DNA of 64,000 nucleotides from Endomychus coccineus (taxonomy: Eukaryota; Arthropoda; Insecta; Coleoptera; Endomychidae): assembly GCA_958510875.1 (NCBI GenBank), contig OY294068.1:160120388-160184387 (forward strand), written 5' to 3'. The notes beneath the pieces are model-generated. The model ran no database searches, was not told the origin of the DNA, and was given only the letters and a program-made list of their open reading frames with translations. The position numbers and the translations under genes were made by a program. Positions 3,677 through 29,925 of this stretch are shown here, in pieces (the stretch's first letter is position 1; each line of letters begins with the position of its first letter).

Positions 3677-4159
3677 ATGACGGAAAGAACTGAACAGCAA
3701 ATTTGCATAAAATTTTGTTTTAATCTTGGTAAAAGTTGTGAGGAAACTATTGAAATGTTCCAAAAGGCCTTTGGAGACGAGTGTATGGGCAAAACACAAA
3801 TAAAAGAGTGGTATAAGCAATTTAAAAGTGACCGCACATCTGTTGACAGTGATCTTCGTTCTGGTCAACCTTCGACGGGAACAACATCGGACAAGGTCGA
3901 GCGAGTGCGATTTGCGATTGTACAAGATCGTGGTTTTACTGTAAGGGGACTAGAAGATGACCTTGGAATACGAAACAGTACTGTTTGGCAAATTTTAAGC
4001 GAGAATTTGGGAATTACTCGTGTGTGTGCAAAATTCATCCCAAAACTGCTCTCAGAACAGCAAAAAAACCTTCGATTAGAAATCGCTCAGGACAATCTAG
4101 AAATGATCAATAGTGATACAAATTGTCTCAAGAAGGTTATTACTGGTGATGAATCATGA
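3677..4159 (+). pseudogene. Mariner transposase, N-terminal part
   Basis: This 160-codon frame carries the two helix-turn-helix segments of a mariner transposase ('KSCEETIEMFQKAFGDECM', then 'FTVRGLEDDLGIRNSTVWQI'). It continues to the first catalytic block 'VITGDES', where the expected tryptophan codon is a stop (TGA at 4,157). Recognisable coding ends around 4,200. Full family members run to about 345 residues, so this copy is truncated and cannot make active enzyme. The matching C-terminus lies at 13,975-14,055. Confidence 0.85.
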
Positions 4160-4199: not shown

Positions 4200-6350
4200 A
4201 TGGGACGAATGCACTGAATGCGAGTAGGTATCCCGACACTTGGGGCGGCCAGACAGAGAGCCTTATCAGATGTAGGCAACCAGTGATACACTAGTGCATG
4301 CGCGGTATGCCCAGACAGGTATCGGTAAGTACTGACCCTGTATTACCGGCCTGGGTAGACGGTTAGGGTGTGGTCTCGCCTCTAACATCTAGGTGTTACC
4401 GGGTAGACGGTTAGGGTGTGGTCTCTGACCGCTAGGGGCCCTTCTGCTATGGTTGTATGATGGAGACCGAGTAGTGGTAATCAGCCTGTATATACAAGAT
4501 CGTTCAAGGTAGACAGCAAGCAATATGTGAGGTTAGGGAGAACTTCAATGTGAAGCAGCATCAAAATATTTTTTTCTACACACGGGAATCGAACCCGAGA
4601 AATGAAATCCAAAGCCAGCTCCTTAACCGCTCAGCTATGGAGGAATTGAGAACAAGCGATTTAAATGTTGTAGATATAACCGCAGGGTATCCGGTCTGAG
4701 TGATAAGTGCGAATATTGCAGTCTATATGATGCAGGTAATTGTTTTACATGACATCAGTCATGCAGGTATGTCACGTAGCCTACAGCGAGGTATGGAATG
4801 TGAGGCTTCATAGCGTCAGTCCTAGGGTTTTGAAATAGTGTTGTTTGTACATGTCGTCAGTCACGTGATTTTTGAAAGAGACCGGGGCTTCATCGAGGTA
4901 TCATGGGAGGGCTGCTGCTCCTTGAATGTATAGATGGAATGTTATACAGTACGGAAATGATATCTTCTTCTGCATTTCTCAAACGCGATGTTTTATAAGG
5001 AAATTACTTTCAAAAACGTTTATTCAAGCTGTCTGTACCTTACTTGATTGCTATATTACAAAATGCGATTTCAATCATCTTAAACATATATGGAAATTAT
5101 TTTTAGTATACAAAATGGAGTTGGAAGACTTCAATGGGGTATGTAATGTGAGGTTATACAGATTGTTTATGTATGACGTTAGTCATGTGAATTTGAATGA
5201 AGCTGGCCCGAGACAGGTGTGTATGTGAGGTTATACAGAGTGTGCAGGTATAATGATGTCTATCACGCAGGTCTTCAGCGAGATATCTACCTTGCAGGAG
5301 CCTTCAATGAAATGTGGGGTTGTTTGTACATGCCGTTAGTCGCAGGGTTTTGTCTGAGTTATAATGATATCGTACGCGGCGCATTGTCTGCCCCCACAAG
5401 TCTTCAATAAGGGGTCATAACATCTAACATGCGATAGTTTACAAAAAATGCTGCTTCTCATAATAGCGATATTATGAAGCGTTTGCAGAAATAACTATTA
5501 AATCATCTAAGGACTTTTTGCTTGATTAGTACTAGCGAGTACAATATTCGTTATAATATTATAAGTATGCATCATTAGCTTACTTGTGAGATAAGGTTGT
5601 GCTAAATCATGTCCAACAGCAATGTATTCAACTTGGAATTATCGTAATGATGTGCGATCCTTCAATGTTAAAGTAGTTTCATAAGTTATCCGAAAGTAAT
5701 ATGAATATATAAAATGTTTTTCCAAAATTAGTTCCGAAGTAAACATAATTCGCTATAATATTCATTCATGTATGTTTCATAAATTATCCGATATAAATCA
5801 AATAAGTTTATGCTAAATTTGTGCCATGTTGAACAATATTCACTATCATATTTTGCGGTAGAGCTACAGCTGGTTCGAGAGATAAGAAAGATACGCCGAT
5901 CACCTTCAAACGCGATGAGAATACTTTATTTTAAATCACACATGTAGTATGTATATATTCGAATCATATTGATTGTAAATCGCATAATATGACCCGAAAT
6001 CTAGCTGCTGCTGGGTGTAGCCCAATATCTATACAGAATCTAGACGAAGCGGTGTTACGCATCACGATGATTATTCGAACTGTCTGTACAGCTCGATTGC
6101 TATATAACAAAATACATTTTTAATCATCTTAAACATATAGATGTGCTAATATAAATTTTTCAGTATGCAAAAATATACTAATAAAACATTTTTCATCGAC
6201 ACACATTTCTTCATAGGATAGTTAGTTTTTATAAAATTCAATCAATTTCAATGGGAAACATATATGCGAGGGAGTTTTATAGAGATCGAACTCATTTCCC
6301 CAACCACCCAAGAGGTAGAACTATGATGAGGAATAGATGTGGATAATGAT
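4200..6350. other. Unassigned insert with diverged short repeats
   Basis: No convincing gene. A 24-bp segment, 'GGGTAGACGGTTAGGGTG' onward, occurs twice (about 4,357 and 4,400). A roughly 65-bp segment around 'ATCATCTTAAACATATA' occurs at 5,030-5,095 and again, diverged, at 6,085-6,150. Segments with 'GTGAGGTTATACAG' recur at 5,150-5,240. Two reading frames at 4,926-5,228 and 5,219-5,410 run through these repeats and have no recognisable domain. The stretch lies between the left mariner half and the virus-like element, so it is part of the same insertion history. Confidence 0.5.
4577..4643 (-). repeat. tRNA-derived sequence (SINE head or tRNA pseudogene)
   Basis: Read on the minus strand there is an A-box-like 'TAGCTGAGCGGTTAAGGAGC' and, about 30 bases on, a B-box-like 'GGGTTCGATTCCCG', followed by an A-rich tail. 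These are RNA polymerase III promoter boxes of a tRNA. The acceptor ends do not pair and the anticodon arm is irregular. A functional tRNA is unlikely; a SINE head or tRNA pseudogene fits better. Confidence 0.45.
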
Positions 6351-6352
6351 AA

Positions 6353-6857
6353 TAATCATATGAATATCTTCATAAGCGCTAATCTATATGACATTCAAAC
6401 ACATGCTTCATAAAAGTCTGAATATTGAGTAGAGCTATAGTATCTTCATCATAAGCGATCATTATCAACATTCAGACACTTGTTTAGCACGTGATTCAAC
6501 AGCCTGGCATCATCGTTCACGAACTATGATGGGCTGATGAGGAATAAAATACCAATAATAATTATATAAATATCTCCATTAGCAATCTGTACATTTTCCT
6601 TCACGAGCACAACTTTTACAAACTCCATACGTTCGCGTAAAAGATTATAATGATAAACACATTTTTGTTCACGGGTTTACATAATCATATGAATATCTTC
6701 ATAAACGCTAATCTATATGACATTCAAACACATGCTTCATAAAAGTCTGAACATTGAGTAGAGCTATAGTATCTTCATAAGCGATCATTATCAACATTCA
6801 GACACTTGTTTAGCACGTGATTCAACAGCCTGGCATCATCGTTCACGAAATATGATG
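6353..6857. repeat. Direct repeat pair of about 180 bp outside the left TIR
   Basis: The segment at 6,353-6,535 returns at 6,681-6,857 with a few differences. Each copy holds 'CATTCAGACACTTGTTTAGC' and 'CATCATCGTTCACGAA', which also occur, slightly changed, inside the virus-like element at 7,798-7,960. The flank is therefore related to the element's own control region and may be a relic of an older or larger copy. Confidence 0.75.
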
Positions 6858-7032
6858 GTTCGATGAGGACTCAAACATTGAACAGATGAATCTTTGAGGT
6901 TAAATATCTGCTGTAGAAATTACCCCACTTTTATTACCTTTTATTTGAGAATATCGATATTTCCCATGTAACGGATTATTGCCTAAAGCTATTTTGTATG
7001 CAACATTGTTATCATTTGCGAGCCTACGAGGG

Positions 7033-7230
7033 CCTGTGTGTTGGTCGGGAATAAATGAATATGTTTGACTATTATTACCTGTAGAGACTCATTTGAGATT
7101 CTTCAAGTTTGAGATTGATAACCCACATGAAGAAAGAAGCTTCAACGATTTGATATCAATGAATATTCGCTATCCTGAATGTGACAACTTTATCGGCTTC
7201 AACACTCGAGATAAGAGAGAATATTCACCG
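7033..7230. repeat. Left terminal inverted repeat
   Basis: It begins 'CCTGTGTGTTGGTCGGG' and matches the reverse complement of 13,772-13,973 with about 10 differences and a small indel in a GA microsatellite near its inner end. Similarity stops abruptly outside 7,033. The outermost bases do not show the AGT-type start often described for Polintons. Confidence 0.9.
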
Positions 7231-7356
7231 CTGATGTAGGGAAAATCAATATGATGCATACAAATTGGGGTGGGTGAGAACATCAGACTATAGCTTTATG
7301 TGTATCGGAATACATAAGGATTTGACGAGTAAGTGGTGTTTTATTGAATTGCAGAT

Positions 7357-7808
7357 CCGGCGATCATAGTTTACGAACGATGATGACGTCACTGCTTCAA
7401 GCCAATGACAGTAACTGATTCAATCCGGCGACCATAGTTTACGAACGATGATGACGTCACTGCTTCAAGCCAATGACAGTAACTGATTCAACCCGGCGAC
7501 CATAGTTTACGAACGATGATGACGTCACTGCTTCAAGGCAATGACAGTAACTGATTCAATCCGGCGACCATAGTTTACGAACGATGATGACGTCACTGCT
7601 TCAAGCCAATGACAGTAACTGATTCAACCCGGCGACCATAGTTTACGAACGATGATGACGTCACTGCTTCAAGTCAATGACAGTAACTGATTCAACCCGG
7701 CGACCATAGTTTACGAACGATGATGACGTCATTGCTTCAAGCCAATGACAGTAACTGATTCAATCCGGCGACCATAGTTTACGAACGATGATGACGTCAT
7801 CATCGTTC
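7357..7808. promoter_or_regulatory. 68-bp tandem array with seven TGACGTCA sites
   Basis: Units start 'CCGGCGA(C/T)CATAGTTTACG' at 7,357, 7,425 and every 68 bp thereafter. Each carries the palindrome TGACGTCA, at 7,384, 7,452, 7,520, 7,588, 7,656, 7,724 and 7,792. TGACGTCA is the full consensus site of the CREB/ATF family of bZIP factors. The last site sits at the centre of a perfect 26-bp palindrome (7,783-7,808), after which the sequence runs as an imperfect inverted copy of the unit start. The array lies about 400 bp upstream of the first gene, so an enhancer or origin role is plausible. Confidence 0.75.
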
Positions 7809-7917
7809 ACGAACTATGATGGGCTAATGAGGAATAAAATGTGAATAATCATAATGATTGTAATACATTCATGCACATGTTTTTTCGCATGATTCAACAC
7901 ATGCTTTAACATTCAGA

Positions 7918-8065
7918 CACGTGTTTCAACATTCAGACACGTGTTTCAGCATTCAGACACGTGTTTCAGACACGTGTTTCAACATTCAGACACGTGTTTC
8001 AGCATTCAGACACGTGTTTCAGACACGTGTTTCAGACACGTGTTTCAGCATTCAGACACGTGTTT
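7918..8065. promoter_or_regulatory. Short tandem array with nine CACGTG E-boxes
   Basis: The repeats read 'CAGACACGTGTTTCA' with spacers giving periods of 20 or 13 bp. CACGTG occurs at 7,918, 7,938, 7,958, 7,971, 7,991, 8,011, 8,024, 8,037 and 8,057. This is the palindromic E-box bound by bHLH proteins such as Myc/Max, USF or Clock/Cycle. It lies directly upstream of the first TATA box. A reading frame through it (7,961-8,170) is a repeat artefact. Confidence 0.7.
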
Positions 8066-8170
8066 CAGCATTCATACCTATTTAACATGTATTTGATACC
8101 TGATTTTGAGAGAAGCGTAGAAGTACCTAACCGCGTGATCAGACATACACAATATAACATCATCATCTAG

Positions 8171-8203
8171 TATATAAACAAATGCTTATTAACATATGTT
8201 CCA
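8171..8203 (+). promoter_or_regulatory. TATA box and initiator for the ATPase gene
   Basis: TATATAAA starts at 8,171. An initiator-like 'TTCCAGTAT', with A at 8,203, lies 32 bp downstream. A start at that A would fall just after the first ATG (8,196), in which case translation would begin at Met12 or Met13 (8,229/8,232). The spacing matches the other genes of the element. Confidence 0.5.
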
Positions 8204-8921
8204 GTATGATTTCGATTCGCCTTCAGGCATGATGAAGATTGTTAAGCAAAAAGACTCGTTGAGTATTATGAACTTAGGCTCAAGCAATGAGAATGTTGAA
8301 CAACCACAACGTCACAGCTCTTTGCTGCCTAATACTCTACGAACAATAATCTGTGGTCCAAGTAATTGTGGGAAAACAAATGTGATGTTATCTCTATTGT
8401 TAGATGCTAACGGCCTGAAATTTGAAAACGTGTACATATATTCAAAGTCTATACACCAACCAAAATACCAGTTACTAAAGGAGACATTGAAGAAAATTGA
8501 GGGGCTTGGATATTTTCCTCGTACCGAAAGTGATGAGGTCATAGACCCCACAGAAGCGAGGCCTAATTCAATCATAATATTCGATGACGTGATGTTTGAG
8601 AAACAGCAGAAAATTCGTGCTTATTTTTCAAGAGGGAGACACAACTCAATTGATAGTTTCTATCTTTGTCAGTCTTTTGCTAAATGTCCAAAACATGGAT
8701 TGCGCGACAATGCCAATTGCTTGATTATTTTCAAACAGGATGAGCTCAATTTGAAACATATATTCACCGATCATGTAAGCACCGACATGTCACTCGAAAA
8801 ATTCAAAGACATATGTAGCGTATGTTGGAAAGATAAATATGGGTTCCTTATGATAAACAAAGACTGTGATATGAACAAAGGACGTTATCGCAAAGGGTTT
8901 GATAGTTATATATACATCTAA
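8196..8921 (+). CDS. DNA-packaging ATPase (A32/FtsK-HerA-like)
   Basis: This is the motor that pumps DNA into the capsid, a hallmark gene of Polintons, adintoviruses and related double-jelly-roll viruses. The 241-residue frame has a Walker A P-loop 'GPSNCGKT' at residues 54-61 and a Walker B 'SIIIFDD' at 125-131. A conserved 'FYLCQSFAKCPKHGLRDNAN' stretch around 155-174 fits the sensor/arginine region of the family. The length is typical and the frame is intact. The first ATG may lie just upstream of the transcript start, so a start at 8,229 is possible. A TATA box precedes it by 25 bp. The next gene follows after 42 bp that contain its own TATA box. The fold assignment is firm; activity is inferred. 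Confidence 0.9.
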   Translation: MFQYDFDSPSGMMKIVKQKDSLSIMNLGSSNENVEQPQRHSSLLPNTLRTIICGPSNCGKTNVMLSLLLDANGLKFENVYIYSKSIHQPKYQLLKETLKKIEGLGYFPRTESDEVIDPTEARPNSIIIFDDVMFEKQQKIRAYFSRGRHNSIDSFYLCQSFAKCPKHGLRDNANCLIIFKQDELNLKHIFTDHVSTDMSLEKFKDICSVCWKDKYGFLMINKDCDMNKGRYRKGFDSYIYI

Positions 8922-8925
8922 CATG

Positions 8926-8961
8926 TATATATACCTTCATTTGAAATAGACAACCCGCTCA
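8926..8961 (+). promoter_or_regulatory. TATA box and initiator for the DUF8207 gene
   Basis: TATATATA at 8,926-8,933 sits only five bases after the ATPase stop codon. An initiator-like 'GCTCAGC', with A at 8,961, is 35 bp downstream and only three bases before the ATG at 8,964. Confidence 0.5.
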
Positions 8962-8963
8962 GC

Positions 8964-10019
8964 ATGGACGTGGGTGTGAGTAACATGCTAAAAGAAAAAC
9001 AACAATTGAAGAAAAAAATTTGGGAGTTAGCAAACGTTGTGAGGAAAAAACATATGGCTGTGAAATTGGGTAAAGCTGAAAATGATGAGATTCTAGATAA
9101 TATGTTCAGGAATGTATCTAAACCTCTGGAGGAAATTGCGAAAAATGCTGAAATAATCAAACAAAATTCGTTGGTTAAACCTAAAAGTATTGTTTCTACA
9201 GCAACACAAATGGAGAACATACCAATCCCAAATATTGTAACTGAAGGGGAAGAGTTCGTATATAACCCCCAAAATACTGAGGAGGATGTGTTTACCCTCG
9301 AACCTACTATCGATCAGATTCGTGAAGAATTCAGAAAACATAAGAAAGATAATGCAGAGGCTACAGAGGAGTTTCTGCAACAATACCCCACATTAGCACG
9401 TTATTACTTGGAAGGATTCCTATTGGATGATGATGTCAAGAAATACGATGATAGAATGGGATTGCAATATAATTCAACTTTAGACAAATGGTTCATGGGT
9501 AATCAACCGATAGAAATTGATAGTGAGAGTAATATAATTATCAAGGGTACTCCGTTCAAGGGTACCACAGGACTGTACAATTTGATATTTTACAGAGATG
9601 TTCTACCTGATACTTACACTGTGGAAGATGGGAAAAATTACAGTCAAATGATGGAAATGACTAGTGCCCATAGACGTAATAACGATCCAGCTGATCGGAT
9701 AAGAAACATTGTAAAATACAAAAATGTACTGAAACCTTTGATTAATTCTATGAAAAAACCCAGAGCCAAAACATACACTGGAAGTGCATATATCAAAAAT
9801 GATATGCTTGAATATAACGAGAAACCTATCGAATATGTTTATTGGGATGACGTTAACGAAATTGTGGATAGACTGAGACTTCTTGTTGCATCCTCGCATG
9901 CAGGTAACCATAATGAGATAATCTCTATAATAGAAGAATTGATAGAGGCAGGGGTAATTGAACAAAAACCAGGTGTAAGACAAATTCATCACAGTTATAA
10001 AGATGGTTTCAATGGATAA
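8964..10019 (+). CDS. DUF8207-domain virion-module protein
   Basis: This 351-residue protein matches a family I recognise from insect genomes, always near capsid genes of Polinton-type elements. Its signature is the C-terminal 'EYVYWDDVNEIVDRLRLLVA' (about 291-310), followed by a histidine/asparagine stretch and 'NEIISIIEELIEAGVI'. Residues 8-45 are lysine-rich and helical. Residues about 160-215 hold the middle block with 'TPFKGTTGLYNLIFY'. The biochemical role is unknown; a core or capsid-assembly protein is a guess from context. It overlaps the next gene by 8 bases if that gene starts at 10,012. The frame is intact. Confidence 0.8.
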   Translation: MDVGVSNMLKEKQQLKKKIWELANVVRKKHMAVKLGKAENDEILDNMFRNVSKPLEEIAKNAEIIKQNSLVKPKSIVSTATQMENIPIPNIVTEGEEFVYNPQNTEEDVFTLEPTIDQIREEFRKHKKDNAEATEEFLQQYPTLARYYLEGFLLDDDVKKYDDRMGLQYNSTLDKWFMGNQPIEIDSESNIIIKGTPFKGTTGLYNLIFYRDVLPDTYTVEDGKNYSQMMEMTSAHRRNNDPADRIRNIVKYKNVLKPLINSMKKPRAKTYTGSAYIKNDMLEYNEKPIEYVYWDDVNEIVDRLRLLVASSHAGNHNEIISIIEELIEAGVIEQKPGVRQIHHSYKDGFNG

Positions 10020-10656
10020 GTTTGGCAGAGCCTCCTCTTCCATGTGGATATATGATACAAATGTATTTAATAATAATTTCAAACAAGTTCACGGACAAGG
10101 ATTATTCCTAACGAGCGATGGGAGTTTTGATATGGAAAATCGTAGATTGTGCAACGTAAAATCACCGAATGATGATGGAGATGTTGCAAATAAAGTGTAT
10201 GTTGATAAATTAACACACAAACTGAATCTGAAAACGGAAACTAGTCTTAAAGATACCTTCAATGTTAGGGTTGATAATTTGATCAAAGATATCAACAAGG
10301 ACCTGGATGAACATAACTTAACGAATGAGAAGGTTATTCTCAACATTGATAAACATCTGATGGACATTCAGAATAAATATAATGAAATGGGAATCTATAT
10401 AAAATCAGAGTATAAAACAATCAGTGATAGTGTGAGGGAAAACAGAAATGAATTGAAAGAGATCAATAACACATTTAACAGTGTGAACATGCGTCTAAAT
10501 GACATTACTAGTAAAGTGGAGGCGTTAGAACGACGGCTGACATCTGTGGAACCTTCTAAGAAGAGACCCTCATCATCCACAACAACAAAGCAGGGCTCTG
10601 TGAAACGTATATCTCCAAATCCTGTGAATATACCCAAAAAATTAATTCTACACTAG
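10012..10656 (+). CDS. Fibre-like coiled-coil protein
   Basis: The 214-residue protein starts at 'MDKFGR', the usual start of its insect relatives; an ATG nine bases upstream (10,003) is also in frame. Residues about 38-58 ('DMENRRLCNVKSP' and 'DVANKVYVDKL') are the short shaft motif shared by phage tail fibres and adenovirus-like fibres. Residues about 65-180 are charged, heptad-like and predicted coiled coil. The tail is rich in Ser, Thr, Lys and Pro. I infer a trimeric vertex fibre or attachment spike. No receptor-binding head is recognisable. The start lies inside the end of the upstream gene. A polyadenylation signal follows at 10,835. Confidence 0.7.
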   Translation: MDKFGRASSSMWIYDTNVFNNNFKQVHGQGLFLTSDGSFDMENRRLCNVKSPNDDGDVANKVYVDKLTHKLNLKTETSLKDTFNVRVDNLIKDINKDLDEHNLTNEKVILNIDKHLMDIQNKYNEMGIYIKSEYKTISDSVRENRNELKEINNTFNSVNMRLNDITSKVEALERRLTSVEPSKKRPSSSTTTKQGSVKRISPNPVNIPKKLILH

Positions 10657-10918
10657 ATTTCCACATTGATGAGATGAGTAGAGAACAAGTTGTGCATGAG
10701 CTTCATGAGCACAGAAGAAAGAACTTTTACCAGCATATGCAATACGACTAGGACGATGAATCAAGAGTCAAGATTGAGATATTCGAAACATATATTGTTA
10801 AGATTATACTTAAGTCTTTTGTATTGAGAAAATTAATAAAAAGATTATTTTGAGATCTTTGGTCTTCCTCCCACCCCTCGTTAAATAACGGTGCAATCTT
10901 GAATTCTCATCAGTCTGT
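10657..10918 (+). other. Spacer with polyadenylation signal and next promoter
   Basis: AATAAA lies at 10,835-10,840 within an A/T-rich stretch, fitting a 3' end for the upstream genes. The spacer then runs into the TATA-like and initiator pair of the phospholipase relic. No gene is seen. Confidence 0.55.
10881..10912 (+). promoter_or_regulatory. TATA-like box and initiator for the phospholipase gene
   Basis: TTAAATAA at 10,881 is followed 31 bp later by an arthropod-type initiator 'TCAGTC' (A at 10,912). The ATG is at 10,919, giving a leader of about seven bases. Confidence 0.5.
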
Positions 10919-11158
10919 ATGGAAGCGTACGTAGGAGAAGGTGTTCCCAATACGCTTATAAACAAGCTCCCGTTTGAACTACAAATCAATACCAGGGGCA
11001 AAATTAGAAGAACGGTTGAGGAGATTCAGGGTATCAATTCATTCGATAAAGCTTGCCGTCTACACGATATTTCATGCAATATAACACTTATAATTGTAGC
11101 CAGTTATATTTGGAATTCCTCTCTAACTCTTCAGTTGTGGCCGATTAGCATTTATTAG
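10919..11158 (+). pseudogene. Phospholipase A2-domain minor virion protein, decayed
   Basis: The frame opens 'YVGEGVPNTLINKLPFEL', a lead-in typical of parvovirus-type PLA2 domains in insect Polinton-like elements. It also keeps 'FDKACRLHDIS', which contains the catalytic His-Asp pair. Between them the calcium-binding loop is missing from the main frame; residues resembling the following helix appear in the neighbouring frame at about 10,995-11,025. The tail after the His-Asp pair is hydrophobic and unlike the family, and the frame ends at 79 codons. In adintoviruses this domain lies in a minor virion protein thought to help particles leave endosomes. Here it should be catalytically dead. Confidence 0.65.
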
Positions 11159-11191
11159 TATATAAATAGATTGTTGATGAAGTTTTCATCA
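11159..11191 (+). promoter_or_regulatory. TATA box and initiator for the penton-like gene
   Basis: TATATAAA starts at 11,159, immediately after the stop of the phospholipase relic. An initiator-like 'ATCAATC', with A at 11,191, is 32 bp downstream and four bases before the ATG at 11,195. ATG 11,177 would lie upstream of this transcript start. Confidence 0.5.
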
Positions 11192-11194
11192 ATC

Positions 11195-11938
11195 ATGTCT
11201 CAGACGTTCACTATCACGGGTAAGAGCTCCCGCTTATCTGTAGATTTTCACCCACCTATAGAACTAGATCCTCATTCATATTATTCTATCGCACTTGTTG
11301 GTTTGCATACGTACAATAGCATCCCGAACATTGAAGAAGGTTTTAATAAATTTTATTATAAAAATGTGAAGGGTGAGGAAAAAGTAGTTACTATACCTAC
11401 GGGGTCCTACGAGTTGACAGACATCGAGGATTTCATACAAAGTGCAGTTTGTGGGATAGGAGTGAAGCAAGAAGAACGTGACCGGAAATTATCAATAAAA
11501 TCTAACAACAACACTCTACACACAGAGCTGAAGAGTGATTTTGAAGTGAATTTTATTCCTAAAGATAGTATTAGCGAACTGTTGGGATTCAGCAAAAAGA
11601 AATTGACATCTCGCGAACTACACGTATCTGATCGACCTATAAACATAATCAAAGTTCAAACAATACGTGTTGAGTGTAACTTAACCGCAGGAGCATATTA
11701 TAACAATAAGATAGCTCATACGATATATGAGTTCTCACCTCTTGTACCACCTGGGTTTTCCATTGATATAGAGCCGAAGAATCTTATTCATCTACCGGTC
11801 ATCAGCAAGACGTCCTTCGATAACATCACGCTGAATATTTCAGATCAGAATTGGAAACCGGTAAATTTTCGTGGAGAAGAAATTATTATACGATTGGAAT
11901 TGAAAAAGATCGCTAGGGATTATGGCTCACAACAATAA
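11195..11938 (+). CDS. Penton-like minor capsid protein (single jelly roll)
   Basis: The 247-residue protein forms, by family analogy, the pentameric vertices of the capsid. I chose the ATG at 11,195 because the product then begins 'MSQTFTITGKSSRL', as in insect relatives, and because the TATA/initiator pair points there. Family signatures are 'HPPIELDPHSYYSIALVGLH' near the N-terminus, 'SELLGF' in the middle and a C-terminal 'VNFRGEEIIIRLELK' strand. The frame is intact and length is normal. An AATAAA overlaps the stop codon (11,934-11,939). Together with the ATPase and major capsid protein this is the conserved trio of double-jelly-roll viruses. Confidence 0.85.
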   Translation: MSQTFTITGKSSRLSVDFHPPIELDPHSYYSIALVGLHTYNSIPNIEEGFNKFYYKNVKGEEKVVTIPTGSYELTDIEDFIQSAVCGIGVKQEERDRKLSIKSNNNTLHTELKSDFEVNFIPKDSISELLGFSKKKLTSRELHVSDRPINIIKVQTIRVECNLTAGAYYNNKIAHTIYEFSPLVPPGFSIDIEPKNLIHLPVISKTSFDNITLNISDQNWKPVNFRGEEIIIRLELKKIARDYGSQQ

Positions 11939-12018
11939 ATAATAATCCAATACTCACCACCACTCATTATATGAAAGGAATTCAACTGAGAAGGTTGCAG
12001 TAGCCATCACTTGAGAAC
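11939..12018 (+). other. Short spacer with a degenerate repeat
   Basis: The spacer contains a diverged first copy of the 'GAGAAGGTTGC' repeat (about 11,989) that recurs inside the next small reading frame. Confidence 0.4.
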
Positions 12019-12234
12019 ATGGGTTTGGATTTTAGCAATAAAAGACATCTCCATAGTGGTCATCAGTCATTATCTACAACGAGCTCGAGGGAGAAGGTTG
12101 CTTCTGCATCACTGTCATTGAAGAAGGAGAAGGTTGCTTCTGCATCACTATCGTTGGAAAATATAAATTTTTTGAAGTCTCTTGGTTACAATGTCGGAAA
12201 AACTTCAAATATTCAACGAGCCAAACTTCATTGA
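12019..12234 (+). CDS. Small basic protein overlapping the capsid gene (uncertain)
   Basis: The 71-codon frame ends 44 bases inside the major capsid gene in another frame. It contains an exact internal repeat, 'EKVASASLSL' twice, encoded by a 36-bp DNA duplication, then 'NINFLKSLGYNVGK'. A short 'FLKSLG' tail motif is familiar from small proteins beside Polinton-type capsid genes in insects, which is my only reason to call it. It has eight Lys/Arg in the first 47 residues. It could be a small virion protein, a displaced C-terminus of the phospholipase protein, or chance. Confidence 0.4.
   Translation: MGLDFSNKRHLHSGHQSLSTTSSREKVASASLSLKKEKVASASLSLENINFLKSLGYNVGKTSNIQRAKLH
12160..12190 (+). 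promoter_or_regulatory. TATA box for the major capsid gene
   Basis: AATATAAA at 12,160-12,167 lies 31 bp before the capsid ATG (12,191), with 'TTACAATG' at the expected transcript start. A transcript starting there would be leaderless or nearly so. The box lies inside the small upstream reading frame. Confidence 0.45.
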
Positions 12235-13393
12235 AGACATCATCCGGGAAGAAACTCATACCTGCTATCCACACACAACACCTTTTGGCAACAGCGATGA
12301 AATTGAGATATTAATCAATCAACAAGATGTGTTGGTAGATTTGGCATCGTCTGCTTTATTCATCGAGGCAGAATTCCAGCCAGAAGCAAGTGGTGATGGT
12401 GAATGTAAACTAACGAATAATTTCGGAGCGTTTCTCTTCGAATATATCAGTTATGAATTGAATGGAAAAGAGATAGACAAAGTACGTGATCCTGGTATTG
12501 TCAGCACCATCAGAGCTTATCTAACATATGCCAAACATGAATCTATACCTCTAGCTATTTCTGGATGGTCATTTAAGGATGCATTGAGTTCAGTCTACAA
12601 TAATAAAATCAATTTATGGATACCGTTGAATTTTCTACTAGGCCTATTCATTGACTATAACAAAGTTTTGAGTGGAAAACATAAGCTGCGCTTGATAAGG
12701 TCTCGAACCGATAACGATTGCTATACTAATAGCACAGGCACGAAAACGGCTAAAATAAATGTGAAGACGATAGCATTAAAAGTGCGACATGTGTTTCCAA
12801 GTGATCAGGTTAAATTTCAAATGTTGGAGAATTTGAGTGCTGAGAAGCCTATTTTGATTCCATTTCGCAGCTGGGATCTGCATGAAAATCCGTTGATGAA
12901 GGAGAGCACTCGTGACATTTGGGCTGTTAAAACTTCAATGAATTTGGAACGTCCCAGATATGTGATTCTAGCTTCCCAAACTGATCGAAAGAATAATCCT
13001 GTTAAGCACAGTGCATATTTCGATAATATAAACTTGCTAAATGTAAAATTATACTTGAATTCAGAGTGTTATCCATATGAAGCAATGAAATTGAATTTCA
13101 CCGACCAGCAATACGTGGAAGCATACCAGATGTACTATGATTTCCAGAAATCATTTTCAAATAAAATAATAAGTGAACCCATGTTAGATTATATAGCATT
13201 CAAGAATAGAGCAATTTTTGTGATTGACTGTTCAAAACAAAACGATGCTATAAAGTCATCAACAGTTGACGTCAAACTAGAGATGGAAAGTTTCCTGAAT
13301 TTCCCCAAAAACACCAGGGCTTATTGCATCATCATTAACGATCGTATAATGGAGTATTCTCCAATTACAGGATCAGTTCGGAGTTTAGTGTGA
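12191..13393 (+). CDS. Major capsid protein (double jelly roll)
   Basis: The 400-residue protein matches the double-jelly-roll capsid family of Polinton/adintovirus-type elements in insects. Characteristic blocks are the start 'MSEKLQIFNEP', 'NSDEIEILINQQDVLV' (about 34-49), 'YELNGKEIDKVRDPGIVST', 'WIPLNFLLGLFIDYNKV' with 'HKLRLIRSRTDND' (first-barrel end), and 'LLNVKLYLNSECYPYEAMKL' in the second barrel. I start at 12,191 because relatives begin there and the codons before it lack an ATG. The frame has no breaks. Trimers of this protein would form the capsid shell. A polyadenylation signal follows at 13,460. Confidence 0.92.
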   Translation: MSEKLQIFNEPNFIEDIIREETHTCYPHTTPFGNSDEIEILINQQDVLVDLASSALFIEAEFQPEASGDGECKLTNNFGAFLFEYISYELNGKEIDKVRDPGIVSTIRAYLTYAKHESIPLAISGWSFKDALSSVYNNKINLWIPLNFLLGLFIDYNKVLSGKHKLRLIRSRTDNDCYTNSTGTKTAKINVKTIALKVRHVFPSDQVKFQMLENLSAEKPILIPFRSWDLHENPLMKESTRDIWAVKTSMNLERPRYVILASQTDRKNNPVKHSAYFDNINLLNVKLYLNSECYPYEAMKLNFTDQQYVEAYQMYYDFQKSFSNKIISEPMLDYIAFKNRAIFVIDCSKQNDAIKSSTVDVKLEMESFLNFPKNTRAYCIIINDRIMEYSPITGSVRSLV

Positions 13394-13771
13394 AGAAACA
13401 TGAATCATAATGTTATTATTTTAATTCTAAATGATGTACTATCAAAATGTATTTTTCTAAATAAATGTTATTATTATTATTTTTGGTATTTTATTTCTCT
13501 TACTTTCCCGCAAGACATCACAATAATGAACGAGCCGTTTGGTAAAGTACAGTCCCTTGGATCAACCCATCAGGATTGTAATCTAAATTATAAATATCGC
13601 TTCAGAGTTAGAAACAAAAAAAATTTCTGTTACTATCTAATTAATAAATATAAATATACTTTTGTTTTATTACATGTTTACATATAATGTTCCTCAAAAA
13701 GTGATTCAGATTATTATGTTATCTTTTCAATTATTATAATATGTAGTACCTAGTGGTTATAAGACAGTTTG
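13394..13771 (+). terminator. 3' region of the capsid gene with AATAAA
   Basis: AATAAA at 13,460-13,465 is followed by a T-rich stretch, a plausible cleavage and polyadenylation site. A 95-codon frame (13,400-13,687) in this region is low in complexity and unrecognised; I do not call it a gene. The right terminal repeat begins at 13,772. Confidence 0.5.
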
Positions 13772-13973
13772 CGGTAAATATTCTCTCTCTCTCTTATCTC
13801 GAGTGTTGAAGCCGATAAAGTTGTCACATTCAGAATAACGAATATTCATTGATATCAATTCGTTGAAGCTTCTTTCTTCATGTGGGTTATCAATCTCAAA
13901 CTTGAAGAATCTCAAATAAATCTACAGGTAATAATAGTCAAACATATTCATTTAGCCCCGACCAACACACAGG
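13772..13973. repeat. Right terminal inverted repeat
   Basis: It is the reverse complement of 7,033-7,230. It carries an expanded CT microsatellite at its inner end and ends 'CCAACACACAGG'. The very next bases belong to a mariner C-terminus, so this side is a clean insertion junction. Confidence 0.9.
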
Positions 13974-27625: not shown

Positions 27626-29431
27626 TCAGGGATCAGAATGTGGTGCAAATTGAGGGATGGGGGTGGATAATGGTGGGAGTGTGTTTACAAAATTGTTAAC
27701 AAGCGGTGAATTATATGTGTCGATTTGATCATTTAATATTACATTATTATTGTTTTTTGCGTGTTTCAAAATTTCTATGGATTCTAATATATTAAGTTTA
27801 TGTCCTTTTTCCTGAATATGTAGAATATCAGGATTAAGGGTGAAATTGTGGTTATGTTCTAACAGGTGATTTGCGTAATTAGAGTCTTCTTTTTTGAGCC
27901 TGTAACTTCTCAAATGTTCATTGAACCTTACGCTGAAACTGCGTCCAGTTTGTCCTATGTACAAAGCACTACAGTCATCACATCTCAGTCTGTAAACTCC
28001 AGATTTCTTTAAGTTATCTTTTTTAGATTTCGAGTTATTAATATACGAGCATAGGTTATTTGTTGTTTTAAAGGCGACGTTTTTATTCTGTTTTTTAAGG
28101 AATTGAGATATTTTTAGTGAATGTTTACCTAAATATGTTAGACATGTGAAATTTGATTTTGTATTATTATTAATTTGCGGATAAATTATGCTTAAGGCTT
28201 TTTTATTGAGTTTATTTTGGAGTATTTTATTGATTATCTTGACATTATAACCGTTATTTTTGGCAATATCTACGATTCTGTTTAATTCTAAATGGAAATT
28301 ATCTTTACTTAATGGGACATTAATTAATCTATGTATCATACAATTATATGCTGCTAGCTTATGTGATTGTGGATGTAAAGAAGTGTTGTGTATTGTGGTA
28401 TCTGTGTGGGTGGGCTTGTGATAAATAGCGAAAGAAAAGTAATTATTTGTGTGTGAAATTGTCAGATCTAAAAAGTTTAAGGACTTGTTGTTTTCCATCT
28501 CTAATGTGAATTCTATATTTGGGTGTAAGTTGTTGATATAGGTGAGAAAAGAATTTATTTGACGGTTACTGCCTGTATAGCAAGCGATTACGTCGTCAAC
28601 ATAGCGATACCAATATACAAACATGTGCTGAAAATTGGAATTTAAAATCTTAGTTTCCAAGTAATTCATAAATATTTCTGCTAGCAACGGAGATAATGGC
28701 GAACCCATGGGGAGTCCGATGTTCTGTTTGTAATATTTATCGTTAATTGTGAAATAATTTTGGTCTATGCAAAGTGAGATTAAACTTAATATTTCCTGTG
28801 TTATTGCCGGTAAAGTATTATTGCGGATTAAAAGATCTTCAATTAGAGTGATGGTCAGTTGTGTGGGAATACTTGGAAAAAGGTTCTTGACATCAAAAGA
28901 TACAAGTTTGATATTTGTCTTTAGTTCTACATCTTTTATTTTTTCTATTAACTGGAAAGAGTTTTTTATACTGTATTTAGGTTTAAAGTTTGTATATGTT
29001 GATATTATGTTGACTAACTTTTTCGCTATTTTTTGACAGGGTGCATTGATATATGAACAGACGGGTCTTATGGGAGTATCGTCTTTGTGAATTTTTAATA
29101 AACCATAAAGAGAAGGTGGTTGAGGATTCATGTTCATTAAACGAGGCTTCTCATATTCAGTCAAAATATATTGGATATTTTTGAGAGAATTTTTAATATT
29201 TGCCTGGAATTTCATTGTAGGGTCTGATTTTAGTTCTATAAATTTTGTTGGATCTAAAAATTGATCAATTTTTTCTAAATATGTAGGTTTATCTATTGCA
29301 ATTATTGTATTACCTTTGTCGGCTTTAGTGAACACGATATTATTTTTAATTGTCTTTTCATTAAGTATTTTAGCAATTTTAATTTCTGGATTTACGAATT
29401 TGCTAGAAGTTAATTTAGTAGAATTTATCAA
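27626..29431 (-). CDS. Penelope-like reverse transcriptase with GIY-YIG endonuclease
   Basis: The 601-codon open frame is the longest in the window. Reverse transcriptase motifs are 'FTKADKGNTIIAID' (about 34-47), 'PSLYGLLKIHKDD' (106-118), 'VSFDVKNLFPSIP' with catalytic Asp 180, 'GLPMGSPLSPLLAEIF' (239-254) and 'YWYRYVDDVIA' with YVDD at 277-280. From residue 478, 'GVYRLRCDDCSALYIGQTGR' opens the GIY-YIG nuclease that nicks the target. The usual N-terminal 150-250 residues are missing, so the first ATG is simply the first in a truncated copy. All catalytic residues are present and the frame is unbroken, which points to a recent insertion. Confidence 0.88.
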   Translation of the reverse strand: MINSTKLTSSKFVNPEIKIAKILNEKTIKNNIVFTKADKGNTIIAIDKPTYLEKIDQFLDPTKFIELKSDPTMKFQANIKNSLKNIQYILTEYEKPRLMNMNPQPPSLYGLLKIHKDDTPIRPVCSYINAPCQKIAKKLVNIISTYTNFKPKYSIKNSFQLIEKIKDVELKTNIKLVSFDVKNLFPSIPTQLTITLIEDLLIRNNTLPAITQEILSLISLCIDQNYFTINDKYYKQNIGLPMGSPLSPLLAEIFMNYLETKILNSNFQHMFVYWYRYVDDVIACYTGSNRQINSFLTYINNLHPNIEFTLEMENNKSLNFLDLTISHTNNYFSFAIYHKPTHTDTTIHNTSLHPQSHKLAAYNCMIHRLINVPLSKDNFHLELNRIVDIAKNNGYNVKIINKILQNKLNKKALSIIYPQINNNTKSNFTCLTYLGKHSLKISQFLKKQNKNVAFKTTNNLCSYINNSKSKKDNLKKSGVYRLRCDDCSALYIGQTGRSFSVRFNEHLRSYRLKKEDSNYANHLLEHNHNFTLNPDILHIQEKGHKLNILESIEILKHAKNNNNVILNDQIDTYNSPLVNNFVNTLPPLSTPIPQFAPHSDP

Positions 29432-29925
29432 TATATTGCTTGCATTATATTTAATTTTTGTTTTGGTTCAATGAACATTTGAGAAGTTACAGGCTCAAAA
29501 AAGAAGACTCTAATTACGCAAATCACCTGTTAGAACATAACCACAATTTCACCCTTAATCCTGATATTCTACATATTCAGGAAAAAGGACATAAACTTAA
29601 TATATTAGAATCCATAGAAATTTTGAAACACGCAAAAAACAATAATAATGTAATATTAAATGATCAAATCGACACATATAATTCACCGCTTGTTAACAAT
29701 TTTGTAAACACACTCCCACCATTATCCACCCCCATCCCTCAATTTGCACCACATTCTGATCCCTGATATTTAAGGACATACTTTTAGATTTAGCTTTAGT
29801 TGATAACTCCTCGCTTTGATAATGCCACAGTGTGGTGAAACATTTTGTCAGCATTTTTAAATTAAATGTTAAAAGTTTTGTGTAAAATTTGAGTTTTATT
29901 CTCCAACTTCTGAAGTATGTGACTG

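What the first reader, a model, noticed from the sequence alone, without database searches (positions are those of the whole stretch)
7033..13973. Compact element holding only the virion-building half of a Polinton-type virus
Seen: about 200-bp inverted repeats enclose an intact packaging ATPase, DUF8207 protein, fibre-like protein, penton-like protein and double-jelly-roll capsid protein, all on one strand in 5.2 kb. Known: Polintons and adintoviruses also carry polymerase B, integrase and usually a protease. None of those is visible here. Inference: this may be a packaging unit or satellite that builds particles but borrows replication and integration, or a deletion derivative whose capsid genes are still maintained.
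Basis: partly seen in the sequence, partly recalled or inferred. Interest (0 to 1): 0.88.

Follow-up and report, generated by a model that had tools for sequence, protein, structure and literature searches.

The report
Capsid-only half of a split virus-transposon
This is one of more than a hundred copies of a mobile DNA element, probably in a beetle, that carries only virus-shell genes and seems to share its ends with separate elements that carry the DNA-copying gene, as if one virus-like transposon had split into two parts.

Summary
Five virion genes lie on one strand at 8196-13393. The "200-bp" repeats are the inner ends of ~3-kb inverted repeats: the left arm starts at 4223, the right arm is cut at 13973. 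A complete sister copy is 12,448 bp, with 2.88-kb arms 99.9% alike, AGTAGG ends and a 6-bp target duplication (Polinton-type integration). All 20 sister copies fetched carry the same gene set; 98 of the 103 best-scoring capsid loci lack in-frame stops. Variants shared between copies in ATPase, penton and capsid are 7 replacement to 47 silent. Polymerase B sits elsewhere, in elements with the same 23-base terminus: of 61 listed terminus pairs, 19 hold the capsid family without a listed polymerase, 4 hold polymerase without a listed capsid gene, none both, 38 are unassigned. Best reading: a non-autonomous, selectively maintained virion module mobilised in trans by polymerase-bearing Polintons with common termini. 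Not shown: the integrase, particles, transcripts, or whether complete Polintons also exist. My literature searches found no precedent.

The parts
4223..7231 (+). left terminal inverted repeat (arm) of the element; begins AGTAGGTATCCCGACACTTGGGG
   Evidence: 94-95% match to the arms of a complete sister copy; terminus read
   Evidence: I1 and I3, 96% complementary to 13788-13973
7287..7898 (.). 68-bp tandem array holding TGACGTCA palindromes
   Evidence: 7 TGACGTCA in 7033-8195
7879..8077 (.). 20/13-bp array with repeated ACACGTGT (CACGTG); copy number varies between sisters
   Evidence: 9 CACGTG in 7033-8195; 6-51 over whole copies of 20 sisters
8196..8921 (+). A32-like packaging ATPase, 241 aa
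   Evidence: Pfam Pox_A32 27.2 bits over cut-off
8964..10019 (+). DUF8207 protein, 351 aa
   Evidence: PF26634 on all 120 listed homologues of 227; predicted fold (pLDDT 71.6) has one match at E <= 0.001, a bracovirus DUF8207 protein
10003..10656 (+). fibre-like coiled-coil protein, 217 aa
   Evidence: weak matches to coiled-coil, minor head and tail-fibre families
11195..11938 (+). penton protein (ORF opens at 11171; start conserved in relatives at 11195)
12191..13393 (+). [quoted passage not shown]
   Evidence: PF21738 E 1e-88; 440 homologues, those with a species name among the 120 listed are in beetles
13788..13973 (-). remnant of the right arm; the rest of that arm is missing in this copy
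   Evidence: no further arm sequence right of 13973 in the window

Best explanation
A non-autonomous Polinton family of about 12.2 kb that carries only the virion module. Polymerase-bearing Polintons in the same genome, ending in the same 23-base sequence, supply replication (and themselves or a third element supply the integrase). The capsid-only element supplies ATPase, penton, capsid and two further virion-module proteins, which package its own DNA and plausibly that of the helper. SHOWN: multi-copy family, Polinton-type ends, a 6-bp target duplication in the one copy tested, termini shared with polymerase elements, purifying selection on core virion genes. INFERRED: trans replication and integration, and packaging into particles.
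For: The first 20 convergent 20-mer pairs of the listing, all on C1, were fetched, and all 20 match all five proteins. The inner 20-mer has 351 hits against 1 for the control. 98 of the 103 capsid loci scored (the best of 4480 candidates) have no stop. One complete copy has AGTAGG ends, 6-bp duplication GCTGTT and 2,880-bp arms 99.9% alike. Of 61 listed terminus pairs, 19 hold the capsid family without a listed polymerase, 17 of them 11.1-12.7 kb; 4 hold polymerase without a listed capsid gene; 0 both. 9 of 76 listed polymerase loci have listed termini nearby; all 13 such termini have the right orientation. A polymerase locus read for 10 kb shows one 1249-aa PolB gene between its own inverted arms and no capsid gene. 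The closest listed polymerase-capsid distance is 23.6 kb, 76 against 103 loci. Variants shared by two or more copies in ATPase, penton and capsid: 7 replacement, 47 silent, p 1e-22 against neutrality.
Against: The integrase was not located: none of the top 150 of 6521 rve candidates lies in or within 12 kb of the pairs examined, but retroelements probably swamp that list. 38 of 61 terminus pairs are unassigned because the capsid, polymerase and 20-mer lists are cut off, so complete Polintons could be among them; a capsid gene of another family would also go unlisted. A second polymerase group (ORFs to 1764 aa) with a related terminus was not read. Apart from the outermost 23 bases, the arms of the two element types show only one 58-bp match at 79% in the part read. 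Silent diversity of the capsid gene (0.0175) is about a third of that of the ATPase (0.060), so recombination or a recent burst shapes these genes. Selection was measured on open copies only. No transcript or particle data.
Confidence: 0.6

Rival explanations
1. Deletion derivative as passenger: a complete Polinton lost its replication half once, the remnant kept its ends and was amplified in trans; the capsid genes no longer matter and only look conserved because amplification is recent.
For: Many copies are recent (arms 96.9-100% alike in the eight of 11 flanked loci whose arms align over 790 bp or more); about 40 of 103 capsid loci tie at one score; only 7 of 22 copies examined have all five frames open; variants seen in one copy only run 155 replacement to 87 silent over the five genes.
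Against: Variants shared between copies, which should be older and within the family, run 34 replacement to 71 silent over the five genes (Fisher p 6e-8 against the single-copy variants) and 7 to 47 in the three core genes.
Confidence: 0.2
2. Ordinary satellite of a complete Polinton: full-length elements with every gene and the same ends exist in this genome (for example the polymerase group with ORFs to 1764 aa); the capsid-only form is a packaging-competent parasite of them.
For: Two loci of the second polymerase group have a related terminus 2-3 kb away (C5:63379003, C1:167274870); unassigned terminus pairs of 15-27 kb exist.
Against: No listed capsid gene lies within 23 kb of any of 76 listed polymerase loci; but capsid genes of another family, or poorly scoring ones, would not be on that list.
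Confidence: 0.15
3. Host-domesticated capsid gene cluster or dead viral insertion.
For: The window copy itself is truncated on the right.
Against: Over a hundred dispersed copies, many with paired ends, and a target-site duplication in the copy tested.
Confidence: 0.03

Closest known systems
Polintons / Mavericks (Eupolintoviridae; adintoviruses)
   Same: AG-starting inverted repeats, 6-bp target duplication, DJR capsid, penton, A32-like ATPase
   Different: Polymerase and integrase, and the usual protease, were not found in the element; some described Polintons lack the capsid half instead (PMC4028283, passages)
Bidnaviruses (two-segment insect viruses with Polinton-type PolB)
   Same: Genome in two linear parts with conserved ends, PolB derived from Polintons (PMC4061559, passages)
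   Different: ssDNA, parvovirus-type capsid, and capsid protein and PolB are on the same main segment; not known to me as integrating families (recalled)
Transpovirons and cytoplasmic linear plasmids
   Same: Half-modules split off from Polinton-like ancestors
   Different: They keep replication and lose the morphogenetic module (PMC11071308, section 11); here the reverse
Virophages (mavirus)
   Same: Penton fold, capsid module, dependence on another element
   Different: They carry their own replication genes and parasitise giant viruses (and recalled)
Bracoviruses (polydnaviriforms)
   Same: A DUF8207 protein is found in a bracovirus
   Different: Domesticated wasp viral system, different capsid lineage (recalled)

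Membership tests
Polinton / Maverick | terminal inverted repeats starting AG, with 6-bp target-site duplication | tested here: met
   One copy with both ends read: AGTAGG ends, GCTGTT on both sides; duplication tested in that one copy only
[quoted passage not shown]
   PF21738 E 1e-88
Polinton / Maverick | penton protein | tested here: met
Polinton / Maverick | A32-like packaging ATPase | tested here: met
   Pox_A32 27.2 bits, cut-off 22.8
Polinton / Maverick | protein-primed polymerase B in the same element | tested here: not met
   no PF03175 match in the eight ORFs scanned, and none of the listed genome matches (about 150 of 201) lies in the window's element
Polinton / Maverick | retroviral-type integrase in the same element | tested here: not met
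   no rve match among the eight + strand ORFs scanned; the largest open frame seen in the outer arms of the complete copy is 164 aa
Polinton / Maverick | adenovirus-type maturation protease | tested here: not met
   no protease family among the eight ORFs scanned; a diverged protease inside an unassigned protein is not excluded
Satellite / multipartite virus system | termini shared with the helper or partner segment | tested here: met
   23-base termini within 3 mismatches on capsid and polymerase elements, reversed-pattern control 0
Satellite / multipartite virus system | parts packaged and transmitted together | not testable with these tools
   needs particle-associated DNA
Satellite / multipartite virus system | partner lacks the complementary module | tested here: inconclusive
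   4 of 4 assigned polymerase pairs lack a listed copy of this capsid gene, but only the 103 best capsid loci were listed; one polymerase element read for 10 of 17.1 kb shows PolB only

The most novel reading that the evidence does not exclude
A multipartite Polinton virus: virion genes and replicase genes live as separate integrating elements with common termini, replicated by one protein-primed polymerase and packaged separately in the same capsids, with the integrase on one of them or on a third.
Probability: 0.35. Interest if true: 0.92.

Novelty: new variant of a known kind. Interest (0 to 1): 0.8.

Why it matters
Loss of the capsid half of Polintons is known; an amplified, selectively maintained family that keeps only the capsid half is the mirror case, and I found no report of it in my searches. 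Because the virion genes travel on an element in which no replication gene was found, selection on them can hardly be explained by linkage to a polymerase; it therefore speaks directly to the open question whether Polintons make particles. It also gives a testable dsDNA precedent for how a genome can become multipartite.

Tried and rejected
Relatives in IMG/VR: scans with the capsid protein, PolB (50), a capsid alignment (55) and a penton alignment (87) found none. Solved structures by sequence: no match for the capsid profile; the penton profile gave three hits that look like chance (adiponectin E 8e-4, another adiponectin and a cytokinesis protein). NCBIfam gave nothing above cut-off. The integrase search with rve was probably swamped by retroelements. 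The idea that the PolB element and the capsid element share long arms was rejected for the stretch read: one 58-bp match at 79% only; beyond that, only the outermost termini are shown to be shared. DUF8207 fold: low-confidence model (pLDDT 71.6), no functional match. Family search for other capsid genes (PF21738, own genome) did not complete. Literature: searched open-licence PMC only; the original adintovirus paper is not held.

Full report

THE ELEMENT IS BIGGER. Reading outward on a sister copy gives the true ends: 12,448 bp, arms of 2,880 bp with 99.9% identity (2 mismatches, 1 gap), starting AGTAGGCAGGGAGTCACTTGGG, flanked by the direct repeat GCTGTT. This duplication was checked in one copy only. 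The window copy has the same kind of left end at 4223 and a left arm to about 7231; the right arm stops at 13973 and no more of it is found in the window. In the eight of 11 flanked loci whose arms align over 790 bp or more, the main arm blocks are 96.9-100% alike (one has a further block at 95.9%); the other three have broken or short arms. Insertions thus range from very recent to older.

HOW MANY AND HOW INTACT. The inner 20-mer occurs 173 + 178 times with up to 2 mismatches against 0 + 1 for the control. I fetched the first 20 convergent 20-mer pairs of that listing, all on C1, so not a random sample. All 20 have matches to all five proteins. Counting a frame as open if it covers at least 97% of the window's protein, of 22 copies (window, the 20, and one more) 20 have the ATPase open, 15 DUF8207, 19 the coiled coil, 18 the penton and 15 the capsid gene; 7 have all five open. 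Genome-wide, the best 103 of 4480 capsid candidates were scored; 98 of the 103 (the window's included) have no in-frame stop. About 40 of them tie at one score, which suggests a recent burst.

SELECTION. Counted gene by gene on open copies: variants seen in a single copy have replacement/silent ratios, per site, of 0.42-0.73; variants shared by two or more copies have 0.04 (ATPase), 0.05 (penton), 0.05 (capsid), 0.36 (DUF8207) and 0.30 (coiled coil). For the three core genes this is 7 replacement to 47 silent, p 1e-22 against neutrality; over all five genes, shared variants 34 to 71 against single-copy variants 155 to 87, Fisher p 6e-8; the DUF8207 and coiled-coil genes are under weaker constraint (27 to 24, p 2e-4). 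Thus the lineage that makes new copies seems to keep these genes working, while inserted copies drift. Limits: closed copies were excluded, variants are not independent of the tree, changes of more than one base in a codon were left out, and silent diversity of the capsid gene (0.0175) is about a third of that of the ATPase (0.060), which points to recombination or a sweep.

WHERE THE POLYMERASE IS. The genome has many Polinton-type polymerase genes: 201 PF03175 matches from 76 scored of 1486 candidates, in two groups by profile coverage and frame length. I read 10 kb around one: a single open 1249-aa PolB (PF03175, E 6e-47) between inverted arms that include the 3' end of PolB itself, and no other ORF above 117 aa. 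Its arms, in the part read, match those of the capsid element over one 58-bp stretch only, at 79%. But the outermost 23 bases are shared: a search with the capsid element's terminus finds the polymerase element's two ends at C1:302428549 and 302445653 (17,105 bp, 3 mismatches), with both arms measuring about 6.62 kb from the end to the inner boundary (the outer 2.15 kb on the right and 4.95 kb on the left were not read). Reversed-pattern controls gave 0. Putting both terminus lists together (100 places listed of 121, and 100 of 186) gives 173 distinct termini and 61 convergent pairs under 30 kb: 19 hold a marker of the capsid family and no listed polymerase (17 are 11.1-12.7 kb, two are 22.8 and 25.1 kb), 4 hold polymerase and no listed capsid marker (13.8-19.5 kb), none both, 38 unassigned, 16 of which are 11.4-12.6 kb. 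The marker lists are cut off (103 capsid loci, 76 polymerase loci, 100 of 351 20-mers), hence the unassigned pairs. Nine of the 76 polymerase loci have 13 listed termini nearby (nearest two within 20 kb), all correctly oriented; the other 67 have none listed within 15 kb. The closest listed polymerase-capsid distance is 23.6 kb.

MECHANISM. Common termini are what a protein-primed polymerase and an integrase recognise (established Polinton biology, recalled), so the capsid-only element could be copied and inserted by proteins from the polymerase element. Kept virion genes on an element in which no replication gene was found suggest that making particles pays for this element: it packages itself and perhaps its partner. 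The integrase is the missing piece: no rve match among the top 150 lies in or within 12 kb of the pairs examined, but that list is probably dominated by retroelements, so this says little.

COMPARISON. Vertebrate Mavericks have AG-type ends, 6-bp duplications and, in cyprinids, core genes under strong purifying selection (PMC8097293, passages). Polintons without capsid genes, and plasmids and transpovirons that lost the morphogenetic module, are described (PMC4028283, passages; PMC11071308, section 11). Bidnaviruses are two-part with Polinton-type polymerase and conserved ends, but capsid protein and polymerase share the main segment (PMC4061559, passages). I saw no report of an amplified capsid-only Polinton family, which cover open-licence papers only. 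By the membership test it is not a Polinton in the full sense (no polymerase, integrase or protease found in it) but it moves and is built like the virion half of one.

Noticed in passing
7287-8077: Between the left arm and the ATPase lie arrays rich in TGACGTCA and CACGTG palindromes (7 and 9 here; 1-8 and 6-51 in 20 sister copies, counted over the whole copy); they vary in length between copies and look like a host-factor-responsive promoter or enhancer (inference).
   Followed up: partly
L042:1-7199 (C1:302433501-302440699): Polymerase element is palindromic: its inverted arms run into the 3' end of PolB, so the last part of the gene is present twice in inverse order.
   Followed up: partly
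C3:47898860-47907745, C2:35384335-35393020, C2:108049781-108058081: Inverted pairs 8.3-8.9 kb apart carry a 94% copy of part of the polymerase element's arm but no listed polymerase: possibly a third element class, a candidate home for the integrase.
   Followed up: no
C1:23657728, C5:38369070, C1:293454634, C4:212729, C1:167970347, C1:70685815: Terminus pairs only 240-3331 bp apart, not read: probably miniature derivatives that use the same ends.
   Followed up: no
C5:63379003, C1:167274870 and others: A second polymerase group with open frames to 1764 aa; two of its loci have a related terminus 2-3 kb away. Not read, may be complete Polintons.
   Followed up: no
L040:3365-3856, L041:135-626: A 164-aa ORF is open in both arms of the complete copy; a shorter, 100-aa version is in the window at 4926-5228. 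Probably not a gene, untested.
   Followed up: no
3677-4159: 160-aa ORF that looks like a mariner-type transposase fragment (by eye, not searched) directly outside the left terminus.
   Followed up: no
27629-29467: 613-aa open frame on the minus strand resembling a reverse transcriptase (by eye, not searched).
   Followed up: no
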